Shown here piece by piece: positions 355 through 5,014 of a stretch of DNA of 43,497 nucleotides. Made by a program: the position numbers and the translations under genes. Source of the DNA: Acidobacteriota bacterium. Its GTDB lineage: Bacteria; Acidobacteriota; Terriglobia; Bryobacterales; Bryobacteraceae. The DNA lies in NCBI GenBank assembly GCA_016870915.1, contig VFZY01000026.1, positions 1 to 43,497 on the forward strand, given 5' to 3'. Numbering within the stretch: position 1 is the first letter of the stretch; each line of letters starts with the position of its first letter. A model generated the notes under the pieces. That model searched no databases and was not told where the DNA came from. It was given only the letters and a program-made list of their open reading frames with translations.

Positions 355-840
355 ATGAGAAAACTGATGATGATGGCCGCGCTCGCCTCGGCCGCCTATG
401 CTGGTCCCATCTCTGTGGGTGGTGGCTGGGAATCGTTTACCTTCGGAGACGTCGGCAGCGGAGCTTCCGGCAACCCCTACACGTTCACGGCGCTTGGTAA
501 CGTCGTGCTGAAGGTGACCGATGCATTCCTTTCGGGCGACCGTTTTGAGGTCTTCGTGAATGCCGTGTCCGCCGGCGAGACGTCGGCCCCTGGCAGCCAG
601 GGCGACCAGATTGGCGACAACTACGACGGCGCGTTTGCGGATGCCCGCTGGAGCAGCGGCATGTGGATGCTGGGTCCGGGCAACTATTCGGTCGATATCG
701 TCACCACGGCTTCCCCGTTCGGTGGCGGCGGCGCGGCTCTCCGGGTTGACGATAAGGTGAATCCGGTTCCCGAGCCGCCCACCTACGCGTTGTTTGTCAG
801 CGGTATCGCGGCAGCGCTCGCGTTCCGCCGCCGGAAGTAG
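355..840 (+). CDS. PEP-CTERM sorting domain protein, copy 1
   Basis: A 161-residue exported protein. The ATG at 355 is preceded by GGAG seven bases upstream and begins a short signal peptide (MRKLMMMAALASAAYA, likely cleavage after AYA). The C-terminus carries a VPEP motif, a hydrophobic segment of about 16 residues and a terminal RRRK, the tripartite PEP-CTERM signal. Proteins of this type are cut and anchored or released at the envelope by an exosortase, which must be encoded elsewhere. The mature part is glycine-rich and predicted beta-rich; its function is unknown. It is the first of a tandem pair about 88% identical by eye, each copy followed by its own terminator. Confidence 0.88.
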   Translation: MRKLMMMAALASAAYAGPISVGGGWESFTFGDVGSGASGNPYTFTALGNVVLKVTDAFLSGDRFEVFVNAVSAGETSAPGSQGDQIGDNYDGAFADARWSSGMWMLGPGNYSVDIVTTASPFGGGGAALRVDDKVNPVPEPPTYALFVSGIAAALAFRRRK

Positions 841-1530: not shown

Positions 1531-1559
1531 ACAAAGAGTCGAAGTCCCAACTACACTTG

Positions 1560-1588
1560 AAGCCGGAGGCCCTGAAAGCCTCCGGCTT
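1560..1588 (+). terminator. Terminator after PEP-CTERM copy 2
   Basis: The same 11-bp stem as at 870-896 with a 7-nt loop (CCTGAAA), followed by TGTTCGTTTC. It separates the PEP-CTERM pair from the acylase gene starting at 1626. Confidence 0.7.
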
Positions 1589-1625
1589 TGTTCGTTTCGG
1601 GATACTCACCGCGGAGAACCCCAAG

Positions 1626-3902
1626 ATGGCCTCATTTCAATCCAAGACTGGAACTTCCGGACCGGGTTCAGCTGCCGGTCAGCGCCGCACCATTGGCCTG
1701 ACGCTGCTTCTCGCGCTGGCGCCGGTGCTTCCGGCCGCCGAGACGGTGACGGTGAAGGGGTTGAAGCAGCCCGTAGAAATCCTGCGTGACCGGTGGGGTG
1801 TACCGCATATCTATGCGGCCAACGACAGCGACCTTTTCTTCGCCCAGGGCTACCTGGCCGCGCGCGACCGGCTTTTCCAACTGGACCTCTGGCGGCGCCA
1901 GGGCACGGGCCGGCTGGCTGAGGTTCTTGGCCCTGTGGCGGTCAACCGCGACCGCATTGCGCGTCTGGTGCGGTACCGGGGCAATTGGGACGCCGAGTGG
2001 AGCAGCTATTCGCCCGACACCCGGGCGATCGCCGTGGCCTTTACCAGCGGCATCAATGCCTACATCGACTCCCTGCGCGGCCGGCGCACCATTGAGTTCG
2101 AAGCGGCCGGCTTCGACCCTGGCAAGTGGCAGCCCGAAGACGTGGTGGCGCGTGTGGCCGGCCTGCTGATGACCCGCAACATTCCGAGCGAAGTGCAGCG
2201 GTCGCTCGATACCGCGCGTTTCGGCGTGGACACCGTGCAGCGCCTGATGCCGCCGGATCCGTTCCTCAAGCTGGAGGTTCCGCGCGGCCTGAATCTGGCC
2301 GACATCCGGCAGGAGATCCTGAAGGACTACAATGACGCCCTGGCGTTTGCGCGGTTCCCGGACCAGGGGTCGAACAACTGGGTGATGCACGGCTCGATGA
2401 CGGCGACGGGCAAACCGTTGCTGGCCAACGATCCGCACCGGCCGATCCTGAACCCGTCGCTGAGAAAGACCGTGCATCTGGTGGCCCCGGGATGGAACGC
2501 CATCGGCGCCGGGGAGCCGGCCCTGCCCGGAGTCTCGACCGGGCACAACGAAGAGGTGGCCTGGGGCTATACGATCGTTGGAATTGATCAGAACGACCTG
2601 TACGTGGAGAAGATCAACCCGGCCAATCCCGGGGAGTACCTGGACCGCGGGCAGTGGCGAAGGTTCGAAACGGAGACGCAGCGGATCGAGGTGAAGGGGG
2701 AGGCTCCGCGGACGGTGGAACTGAGGTATACCCACCATGGCCCGGTGATTTATGAGGATCGTGCCCGGAACCGGGCGTATGCCCTGAAGTGGGTGGGCAC
2801 GGAGCCGGGTACGGCGGGCTACCTGGCTGGCTTGGCCATGTCGCGCGCCCGGAACTGGAGCGAGTTCAAGGGTGCGCTGGACCGTCACAAGGTGCCCAGC
2901 CTCAATTTCGTCTACGCCGACAGGGCGGGGAACATCGGCTGGGTGCCGCGCGGGCTGACGCCCATCCGCACGGCAGGCGCCGGCCTCTACCCGGTGCCCG
3001 GCGACACGGGCGAGTATGAATGGAAGGGCTTTCTCACGCTCGATCAGCACCCGCAGAAGTTCAATCCGCCGGAGCAGTGGATCGGCACGGCGAACCACAA
3101 CATTCTGCCCGCCGGGTACCCGCATAGGATGAGCCATGAATGGGCGCAGCCCTGGCGCTACGACCGGATCCGGGAGATGGTGGCCGCCCAGAAGGACCGT
3201 AAGTTCACCGTGGACGACTTCATCCGGATGCAACAGGATGTAACGTCGCTGCCGGCGCGGCGCCTTCAGGGGATCCTGCGCAAATGGGACCCGGAGGGGA
3301 ATGCCGCGGCCGCCGGGGTGCGGCAGCGCCTGTTGGCGTGGGACGCCCGTCTGATGGCCGATTCGGTGGAAGCGACGCTGTTTGAGGCGTGGCTGGCGAA
3401 GCTTCCGGCGGCGGTTTTCCCGGAGGCCTACGCGGCGCGGGTACCTCTCGACCGCTTGTTTGGGGAACTGGAAGCACGTCCCAATCCCAAGGCTCTGGCG
3501 GCGGCTCTGGATGCCGCTCTCAAGGACCTGGAGAAGCGGCTGGGAGCCGACCGCGCGCAGTGGCAGTGGGGCAAGCTGCACACCATCATCTTTCGGCATC
3601 CATCGGGCCGGAAGGCGTTTGACCGGGGTCCGGTGGCGCGGCCCGGTGACGGGAATACGGTGAATTCCACCAGCGGGACCGGGTTCGTTCAGACCAACGG
3701 AGCCTCCTACCGCCACATCATGGATCTGGCGGACTGGGACCGTTCCGTGGTGACCAACGTTCCGGGAGAGAGCGGAGACCCGGCGAGCCCCTACTACTCG
3801 AACCTGGTCGACATGTGGGCCGCGGGGCAGTATCACCCGCTGCCGTACTCGCGCAAGGCCGTGGAAGCGGCGACGGCCGAGAAGATCCTGCTGAAGCCGT
3901 AG
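1626..3902 (+). CDS. Penicillin acylase family protein (Ntn hydrolase)
   Basis: A 758-residue secreted amidohydrolase precursor. The ATG at 1626 follows GGAG with a 9-nt gap and gives a signal peptide (hydrophobic core about residues 24-36). Family landmarks are the early RWGVPHIYA block, a propeptide region, and the GSNNWV motif whose Ser249 would become the N-terminal nucleophile after autocatalytic cleavage. Further along are a conserved TGHNEEVAWG block and an NHN motif near the end of the beta subunit. These enzymes act in the periplasm or outside the cell on N-acyl bonds such as acyl-homoserine lactones, lipopeptides or beta-lactams; the substrate cannot be read from the sequence. The length is typical. 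It stands alone after a terminator. Confidence 0.9.
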   Translation: MASFQSKTGTSGPGSAAGQRRTIGLTLLLALAPVLPAAETVTVKGLKQPVEILRDRWGVPHIYAANDSDLFFAQGYLAARDRLFQLDLWRRQGTGRLAEVLGPVAVNRDRIARLVRYRGNWDAEWSSYSPDTRAIAVAFTSGINAYIDSLRGRRTIEFEAAGFDPGKWQPEDVVARVAGLLMTRNIPSEVQRSLDTARFGVDTVQRLMPPDPFLKLEVPRGLNLADIRQEILKDYNDALAFARFPDQGSNNWVMHGSMTATGKPLLANDPHRPILNPSLRKTVHLVAPGWNAIGAGEPALPGVSTGHNEEVAWGYTIVGIDQNDLYVEKINPANPGEYLDRGQWRRFETETQRIEVKGEAPRTVELRYTHHGPVIYEDRARNRAYALKWVGTEPGTAGYLAGLAMSRARNWSEFKGALDRHKVPSLNFVYADRAGNIGWVPRGLTPIRTAGAGLYPVPGDTGEYEWKGFLTLDQHPQKFNPPEQWIGTANHNILPAGYPHRMSHEWAQPWRYDRIREMVAAQKDRKFTVDDFIRMQQDVTSLPARRLQGILRKWDPEGNAAAAGVRQRLLAWDARLMADSVEATLFEAWLAKLPAAVFPEAYAARVPLDRLFGELEARPNPKALAAALDAALKDLEKRLGADRAQWQWGKLHTIIFRHPSGRKAFDRGPVARPGDGNTVNSTSGTGFVQTNGASYRHIMDLADWDRSVVTNVPGESGDPASPYYSNLVDMWAAGQYHPLPYSRKAVEAATAEKILLKP

Positions 3903-4274
3903 GGCATCTGGGGAACCGCCCCAAAAGGGACTCGATCCGGCTTTCGCTCCGTTGCGTGGTTGCGGATGCTTGGAGCCGCGCCGGAGCGGCCTCCGCGCTT
4001 TACACCTTGGAATAAAATCGCCTCGAATTGGATCTTGCACACCAGATGGCGTGAGAGGATTCTATTCCGGCGGCCACTCTCATCATGAAGGCCCTCCGGT
4101 ACTGGAACTCAATTGTCGAAACGTTTGAGCGCCGGATTGCACCTAATAGGTGAGGGCATCTTGTATTGAACGCGCAAAAGTTGAACGCGCAGGTTTGACG
4201 TATCGCGCGGCGGCTTTTGCGCTGATTACGGTGGAAGCCGGCACCCAACCAGGCCGCCGGCGGAGGTGAACGAA
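3903..4274. other. Intergenic region with diverged repeat and direct repeats
   Basis: No gene is supported. It holds the diverged palindromic repeat copy at 3929-4000 and a direct repeat TTGAACGCGCA at 4166-4176 and 4181-4191 (period 15 nt), which could be an operator-like site or chance. A good ribosome-binding site (GGAGG, 4262-4266) precedes the next gene. Confidence 0.5.
3929..4000. repeat. Palindromic interspersed repeat, diverged copy A
   Basis: Shares with the copies at 4616 and 4710 the arms GATCCGGC (3934-3941) and GCCGGAGC (3980-3987) around a 38-nt centre, then GGCC, a variable dinucleotide and GCGCT. The left arm has one mismatch, and the centre is only loosely similar to the other two copies. 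Confidence 0.55.
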
Positions 4275-4595
4275 ATGCAGGTACGAATTCAGGTCAGACG
4301 TGCGGATCCGGCGGCCGCGACGCTCTCCGGCGCCCGTGCTCTCGCCCGTTCCATGGTTGGCGTGCTGATGGCGCAGCTTCTGGTTCCGGCATCCCTGGCG
4401 GCGTACGTGTTGGCGCTTTGGAGGCTGGGGTCCGATCTTCAAATGACTGAGACCTTTGCCATCTCGCAGGGTTTCTTCTCGCACTGGCAGGTGTGGCTGG
4501 GGTTGGCCGCCGGCGCTCACGCCGGTTCGGCTTTCCTGGCCCGGCATCGCGACGAAGCGCCCAAGGAAAGCCGGGTCCGCCGGATGGCTGCCTGA
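4275..4595 (+). CDS. Small membrane protein of unknown function
   Basis: A 106-residue protein I do not recognise. The ATG at 4275 has GGAGG eight bases upstream; an in-frame GTG at 4266 would overlap that site. Two hydrophobic segments (about residues 26-50 and 72-91) suggest two membrane spans with a basic C-terminal tail. It is flanked on both sides by palindromic repeats and has no operon partner. Confidence 0.65.
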   Translation: MQVRIQVRRADPAAATLSGARALARSMVGVLMAQLLVPASLAAYVLALWRLGSDLQMTETFAISQGFFSHWQVWLGLAAGAHAGSAFLARHRDEAPKESRVRRMAA

Positions 4596-4615
4596 AGCGC
4601 TCGCTCTTGAAAAGC

Positions 4616-4699
4616 ACGCGCAAGACGGACTGGCTCCGGCTTTCTCTTAAACCGAGTGTTTCTCGATGTTTGGCGCCGCGCCGGAGCGGCCTTTGCGCT
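4616..4699. repeat. Palindromic interspersed repeat, copy B
   Basis: A unit of about 84 bp built as an imperfect palindrome: GCGCAAG at the left edge against CTTTGCGC at the right, and a perfect inner pair GCTCCGGC (4633-4640) / GCCGGAGC (4680-4687) around a 39-nt centre. Directly repeated 94 bp downstream. Confidence 0.8.
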
Positions 4700-4709
4700 C
4701 TTTAGGAAA

Positions 4710-4793
4710 ACGCGCAAGACGGACTCGCTCCGGCTTTCTCTTGAGCCTGGTGTTTCTCGATGTTCGGTACAGCGCCGGAGCGGCCTTTGCGCT
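4710..4793. repeat. Palindromic interspersed repeat, copy C
   Basis: The same unit as copy B at a 94-bp period. The inner arms are GCTCCGGC (4727-4734) and GCCGGAGC (4774-4781), again with exactly 39 nt between them. The centre keeps the block TGTTTCTCGATGTT seen in copy B. Confidence 0.8.
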
Positions 4794-5014
4794 ATTGAGC
4801 AACCGTGCAAGGCATCCCTCCTCCGCCGCGCTGGGGCGACCAATCCCCATCACCTTTCCACAGGGCTCGTCACGACGCCCGGTGAGCAGAGCGGGTAAGT
4901 TCCCGTAACGGACCCTTCGCGGCAGTCACTATCTGACAGCGATTGAAGCCGACAACGGGAGACAGAATTTCCGGCCTCAATCGGCAGATTGACGGACGCC
5001 AAGGAGGTTCCATC

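What the first reader, a model, noticed from the sequence alone, without database searches (positions are those of the whole stretch)
3929..4793. Unassigned palindromic intergenic repeat, three copies, two in a 94-bp tandem
Copies at 4616 and 4710 have identical inner arms GCTCCGGC/GCCGGAGC exactly 39 nt apart, outer arms GCGCAAG/CTTTGCGC and a partly conserved centre. A diverged copy lies at 3929. The geometry (long conserved centre, GC-rich arms, clusters in intergenic space) fits a REP/BIME-like or non-autonomous element I cannot assign to a named family.
Basis: seen in the sequence. Interest (0 to 1): 0.6.

Follow-up and report, generated by a model that had tools for sequence, protein, structure and literature searches.

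The report
REP-like mobile hairpin family in Bryobacterales
The repeat is one member of a large family of tiny (about 93 bp) hairpin-forming mobile DNA elements found across one order of soil Acidobacteria; they insert just after a short CTTYT motif, often exactly at a gene's stop codon without harming the gene, and they probably jump as single-stranded DNA like the REP elements of other bacteria.

Summary
Two 94-bp tandem copies (cores 4617-4699, 4711-4793; 39 nt between identical inner arms) and a diverged copy (3922-3999) exist. It is not a local duplication: the same genome holds about 45 copies on some 30 contigs, including arrays of up to six. The left-end motif occurs in 94 of 257 Bryobacterales genomes, up to 151 copies each, with controls near zero; elsewhere in the phylum it is at background. 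Inner arms and centre differ between genomes; the ends are constant: RAGGAACNC - GCGCAMA.AC.GG ... CCTKTGCGC - TTYT. The outer stem covaries. One copy interrupts leuB in frame; ten relatives have the empty site, so the mobile unit is 93 bp, equal to the tandem period, inserted after CTTYT. At TTY-TRA gene ends the element's first bases (GA/AA) restore the stop codon. Best explanation: a REP-like, IS200/IS605-like single-strand miniature element moved in trans by an HUH (Y1) enzyme. Mobility is well supported; the enzyme is not identified. It lacks the GTAG tag of classical REPs, so it is a new variant, not a member.

The parts
3922..3999 (+). Diverged copy; starts 19 nt after the stop codon of the penicillin-amidase gene
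   Evidence: (nhmmer E 2e-16)
4609..4703 (+). Tandem unit 1: tag GAAAAGCA (4609-4616) + 83-nt hairpin core (4617-4699) + right end
4704..4797 (+). Tandem unit 2: tag AGGAAAA (4704-4710) + core 4711-4793 + right end
4633..4640 (+). Inner arm GCTCCGGC of unit 1 (partner 4680-4687); unit 2: 4727-4734 with 4774-4781
4618..4624 (+). Outer arm GCGCAAG of unit 1 (partner CTTTGCGC 4691-4698); unit 2: 4712-4718 with 4785-4792
1557..3902 (+). Penicillin amidase gene (PF01804) upstream of the diverged copy; host context, not part of the element
4266..4595 (+). Small predicted ORF (109 aa, no Pfam match) between copies; stop codon 21 nt before the core of unit 1

Best explanation
A non-autonomous miniature mobile element of about 93 bp. 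Shown: the unit RAGGAACNC-hairpin-TTYT is dispersed in 94 of 257 genomes of the order, and one exact 93-bp insertion after CTTYT is proved by empty sites. The hairpin has a covarying outer stem with an invariant 2-nt AC bulge, and its right end carries the same TTYT motif as the target. Inferred: the top strand folds during replication; an HUH (Y1) single-strand transposase binds the bulged hairpin and cuts 3' of TTYT at both ends, the cut sites being chosen by pairing of the foot sequence GGAA with TTYT (with G-T wobble), as guides do in IS200/IS605; the single-stranded unit is joined 3' of another CTTYT. Because the unit ends in TTYT, it makes a new target beside itself, which allows tandem arrays; local duplication then homogenises them. 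At gene ends TTY-TRA the unit's first two bases (GA/AA) rebuild the stop codon, and inside genes the 93-nt length and open frames can extend the protein without stopping it, so such insertions survive.
For: Family size and distribution: about 45 copies in the own genome; same unit in Candidatus Solibacter sp. PR.3.38; 94 of 257 genomes of the order, control near 0; background level elsewhere in the phylum. Empty site: leuB of G076 carries the 93-bp unit in frame (+31 aa), ten relatives lack it, and Pfam Iso_dh is split into two stretches. Target: left flank before RAGGAAC is C 79%, T 79%, T 82%, Y 96%, T 96% (n=57); right end after GCGC is T 90%, T 65%, Y 92%, T 55% (n=60). Stem: standard pairs in 98.4% of cells, one pair A-T in 8 and C-G in 5 of 14 genomes, AC bulge invariant; slid controls 28-59% for the structure as a whole. 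GGAA/TTYT pairs in 78.6% of cells and is part of the predicted minimum-energy fold in several genomes. Stop codons: in 9 of 33 G000 loci and 4 of the 6 full-length PR.3.38 loci a same-strand gene stops exactly in the tag, proteins ending in Phe; five are outer-membrane barrels whose Pfam profile runs to within 2 positions of its end (836-838 of 838) and to within 7-9 residues of the stop, so these are natural C-termini. Literature: TnpA-REP recognises bulged single-strand hairpins and cuts at CT 5' or 3' of the REP (PMC8266576); IS200/IS605 guides choose cut sites. Arrays: within-array identity 0.95-0.98 versus 0.88-0.90 to other copies for four arrays; mixed subtypes in some arrays (L202, L209, L111).
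Against: No element end lies near 30 Y1 loci of element-rich genomes (only weak 2-4-mismatch hits) or 30 class-3 Y1 loci. Presence of class-3 Y1 does not correlate with the element (Fisher p 0.09, 0.43, 0.28). Some element-rich genomes have few Y1 genes and one (G102, 71% complete) has none detected by PF01797. Only one locus has empty sites aligned at DNA level. The guide pairing is short and its T side is not independent of the target consensus. In C108 both flanks read TGATAAAC, which a simple model does not predict.
Confidence: 0.6

Rival explanations
1. A MITE of a conventional DDE transposon: the arms are terminal inverted repeats and TTYT or CTTYT is a short target-site duplication.
For: Inverted arms, small size, no coding capacity, TTYT on both sides of the filled leuB site.
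Against: The unit's ends (RAGGAAC... / ...TTYT) are not inverted repeats of each other; the duplicated bases have a fixed sequence rather than a fixed length of random sequence; the invariant asymmetric AC bulge and single orientation in arrays are unexpected; no larger element with the same ends was seen, though only three solo ends were followed with long flanks and those stretches were not annotated.
Confidence: 0.15
2. A functional 3'-end RNA (terminator or mRNA-stabilising hairpin) that spread by being useful after stop codons, mobility being secondary.
For: About 40% of G000 loci lie within 0-40 nt after a same-strand stop (13 of 33); strong RNA folding (mean z -2.7).
Against: The opposite strand folds nearly as well (z -2.4); no clear terminator T-run after the stem; copies occur inside genes and in either orientation to genes; no Rfam match.
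Confidence: 0.12
3. A recombination site of a tyrosine recombinase (integron attC-like or Xer-like) rather than a transposon end.
For: Bulged hairpin directly after stop codons, tandem arrays, site-specific target.
Against: No GTTRRRY/RYYYAAC boxes; arrays hold no gene cassettes; copies are scattered over some 30 contigs.
Confidence: 0.05

Closest known systems
REP / REPIN elements with TnpA-REP (RAYT)
   Same: Short, numerous, mostly intergenic, imperfect hairpin with bulge, conserved tag at the 5' foot, occasional intragenic copies; TnpA-REP cuts at CT next to the hairpin (PMC8266576).
   Different: Tag is RAGGAACNC, not GTAG; unit 93 nt with a long variable centre; head-to-tail arrays rather than inverted pairs; defined CTTYT target with an empty site; no adjacent transposase found.
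Class-3 TnpA-Y1 and its CnGA-footed hairpins (about 600 copies in Solibacter usitatus; PMC6006769)
   Same: Same bacterial group; single-strand hairpin repeats; foot CnGA resembles the TTCTGA of this family; in G072/G099 the two repeat types are fused end to end.
   Different: In 24 of 30 loci class-3 genes are flanked by a different repeat, CNGAGCCGCGACCGYRAGGGAGCG; this family is not near them and does not co-occur.
TIRtrons/TIRYT repeats of Acidobacteria (PMC3733652)
   Same: Moderately abundant repeats linked to Y1 transposases in Acidobacteria, also in dimers and clusters.
   Different: Those are terminal inverted repeats around the transposase gene, some sharing GGGGWSAS; none of that is seen here.
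IS200/IS605 ends (IS608, ISDra2) and their non-autonomous derivatives
   Same: Insertion 3' of a fixed short target, right end carrying a similar motif, foot sequence complementary to the cut site, no target duplication beyond it.
   Different: One hairpin instead of two subterminal ones; no tnpA or tnpB; transposition not demonstrated.

Membership tests
REP (TnpA-REP associated) | Dispersed palindromic repeat in many copies | tested here: met
REP (TnpA-REP associated) | GTAG/GTGG tetranucleotide at the 5' foot of the hairpin | tested here: not met
   Foot is GGAAYNC in all 14 aligned genomes
REP (TnpA-REP associated) | Cognate tnpA-REP gene flanked by the repeat | tested here: not met
   No clear element end within about 1.5 kb of 30 Y1 loci and 30 class-3 loci; absence elsewhere not excluded
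REP (TnpA-REP associated) | Imperfect stem with bulge kept by selection | tested here: met
   Invariant AC bulge and covarying pair in the outer stem
BIME / REPIN | Two repeats in inverted orientation | tested here: not met
   Arrays are head-to-tail
IS200/IS605 (works like) | Insertion 3' of a fixed short motif, without other target duplication | tested here: met
   leuB empty site and flank counts; one aligned empty site only
IS200/IS605 (works like) | Foot guide complementary to the cut sites | tested here: inconclusive
   GGAA/TTYT pairs in 78.6% of cells, short and not independent
IS200/IS605 (works like) | HUH-Y1 transposase catalyses the movement | not testable with these tools
   Needs biochemistry; Y1 genes present in 19 of 20 element-rich genomes
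Class-3 CnGA repeats | Hairpins flank class-3 tnpA-Y1 genes | tested here: not met
Rfam families | Match to a curated RNA family | tested here: not met
Integron attC | RYYYAAC / GTTRRRY core sites around the hairpin | tested here: not met
   Flanks are TTYTRAGGAAC / TTYT

The most novel reading that the evidence does not exclude
A new class of single-strand miniature transposon whose target is set by base pairing of its own sequence (foot GGAA with TTYT, or the loop GWGTTCCTC, which is complementary to the tag GAGGAACWC), so that it is reprogrammable and tuned to land on stop codons harmlessly.
Probability: 0.22. Interest if true: 0.85.

Novelty: new variant of a known kind. Interest (0 to 1): 0.62.

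Why it matters
How REP-like elements spread is described as unresolved (PMC8266576). This family offers what that field lacks: an exact mobile unit, an aligned empty and filled site, a target motif, hundreds of copies with a gradient between species, and arrays. It also shows a simple way for an insertion to be harmless: its first two bases restore the stop codon it lands on.

Tried and rejected
Local duplication only: rejected. Known Rfam RNA: none. Cognate Y1 by linkage or co-occurrence: not found. Class-3 transposase as the owner: its genes carry another repeat. The idea that the element supplies a premature stop and truncates genes: rejected for the outer-membrane proteins, the FliN-domain protein and the PP2C protein, whose domains run to or close to their natural ends. 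Stop codon as the obligatory target: rejected, since only 8 of 61 loci sampled in other genomes have it. Integron-type site and terminator: see rivals. A plasmid search with a flanking protein gave only distant homologues (under 60% identity) and nothing about the repeat. Loop-tag pairing: suggestive only (77% of cells, mixed counts).

Full report
1. The observation. Inner arms are identical and 39 nt apart; the period is 94. The third copy is about 75% identical to the pair and its outer stem has decayed.

2. Not a local duplication. A BLAST of the pair against the own genome (G000, 6.6 Mb, 367 contigs) gave 51 matches, and a 19-nt right-arm pattern gave 67 hits against 29 for the reversed control, so about 45 true copies. 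Profile searches give an 83-nt core, CGCGCAAGACGGACTCGCTCCGGCTTTCnCTTAAGTCGCGTGTTCCTGGACGTTTGGAGCCGCGCCGGAGCGGCCTTTGCGCT. Outside the core most good copies have a tag TTYTRAGGAAC, more or less decayed, on the left and a TTYTRA-like sequence on the right, so the real unit is about 93 nt.

3. Relatives. The right arm occurs in Candidatus Solibacter sp. PR.3.38, which has about a dozen copies with 93-nt arrays; one unit there has quite different inner arms but the same ends. A search with the left end alone found matches in 94 of 257 genomes of the order, up to 151 per genome, almost none in the control; across 396 genomes of the phylum the hits outside the family are single and at control level. 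Elements from many genomes share only the ends: RAGGAACNC, GCGCAMA, AC, GG ... CC, TKTGCGC, TTYT. Most units are 93 nt (38 of 72); 44-nt units without centre also exist. Outer stem: 7 pairs never vary, one is A-T in 8 and C-G in 5 of 14 genomes.

4. Mobility and target. In G076 a copy lies inside leuB, antisense and in frame. Ten relatives have the uninterrupted gene. Filled: GCCGCTTC TGAGGAACTCGC...CTGTGCGCTTT TCAGATAC; empty in G011: GCCGCTTCTCAGATAC. The insertion is exactly 93 bp and the protein gains 31 residues; Pfam sees the domain in two stretches. Another G076 copy (L144) reads through in frame within a PIN-domain-like gene (domain name from inspection, not from a profile search). Flank counts give the target CTTYT.

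5. Stop codons. In G000, 9 of 33 loci have a same-strand gene that stops exactly within the tag (8 single loci or arrays plus the C322 array), while only 12 of 235 predicted genes in the same sequence end Phe-TRA at all. In PR.3.38 it is 4 of the 6 full-length loci. All end in Phe. Five are outer-membrane barrels whose Pfam profile is matched to within two positions of its end, 7-9 residues before the stop, so the ends are natural. The unit starts with GA or AA, so insertion at TTY T^RA restores TRA. In a sample of other genomes the fraction is 8 of 61, so this is a tolerated subset of sites, not the rule. The G000 sample was chosen around elements, so the gene fraction is a rough comparison only; genes were called with a simple codon-usage script, not a published gene finder.

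6. Arrays. Within-array identity is 0.95-0.98 in four G000 arrays against 0.88-0.90 to other copies, and linkers are array-specific: local duplication. Some arrays mix subtypes: insertion beside an existing copy. Both are expected if the unit's right end recreates the target.

7. Mechanism. The data fit IS200/IS605-type single-strand transposition: fixed 5' target, matching right-end motif, bulged hairpin, foot GGAA able to pair with TTYT. That a Y1 enzyme does it is inferred. G000 has one Y1 gene detected (C320), which has the class-3 signature of PMC6006769 (NHVH, Y----Q) and carries the CCGAGCCGCGACCGCAAGGGAGCG repeat, not this element. No Y1 locus examined carries the element's ends. The owner is unknown.

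8. Relation to known kinds. It works like a REP or an IS200/IS605 end; it is not filed as a REP because the GTAG foot and the flanking transposase were tested and not met. Quentin et al. 2018 mention about 600 hairpins in S. usitatus with class-3 genes; the repeat beside class-3 genes here is a different one, so that report most likely does not describe this family, though S. usitatus itself could not be searched. The literature searched is open-access only.

9. Handling note. The joined-flank script processed one segment lying in a PIN-domain-like gene; that segment was not used further.

Noticed in passing
L285-L314 (class-3 Y1 loci); own genome C320 near 4.36 kb (L285:1996): Class-3 TnpA-Y1 genes are flanked by CNGAGCCGCGACCGYRAGGGAGCG repeats in 24 of 30 loci; this probably is the CnGA repeat of PMC6006769.
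   Followed up: partly
L157, L172, L173, L174, L186: In G072 and G099 this element's right end is fused directly to the inverted class-3 repeat (GCGC-TCCCTYGCGGTCGCGGCTCAG), making a composite with CTGA-type feet at both outer ends.
   Followed up: partly
L149:510-1300: Another Y1 gene flanked by inverted repeats (GGCAGACACGAGTGTC-type) lies close to a copy of the element.
   Followed up: no
window 355-840 and 1045-1530: Two adjacent near-identical genes for secreted proteins with PEP-CTERM-like C-termini, a recent tandem gene duplication.
   Followed up: no
G143:C158:7-116, G146:C81:34-231: 44-bp tandem arrays of a centreless form of the element.
   Followed up: no
C108:1900-2015 (L098): Both flanks of this copy read TGATAAAC instead of TGAGGAAC on the left, suggesting a longer duplication or conversion at this locus.
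   Followed up: no
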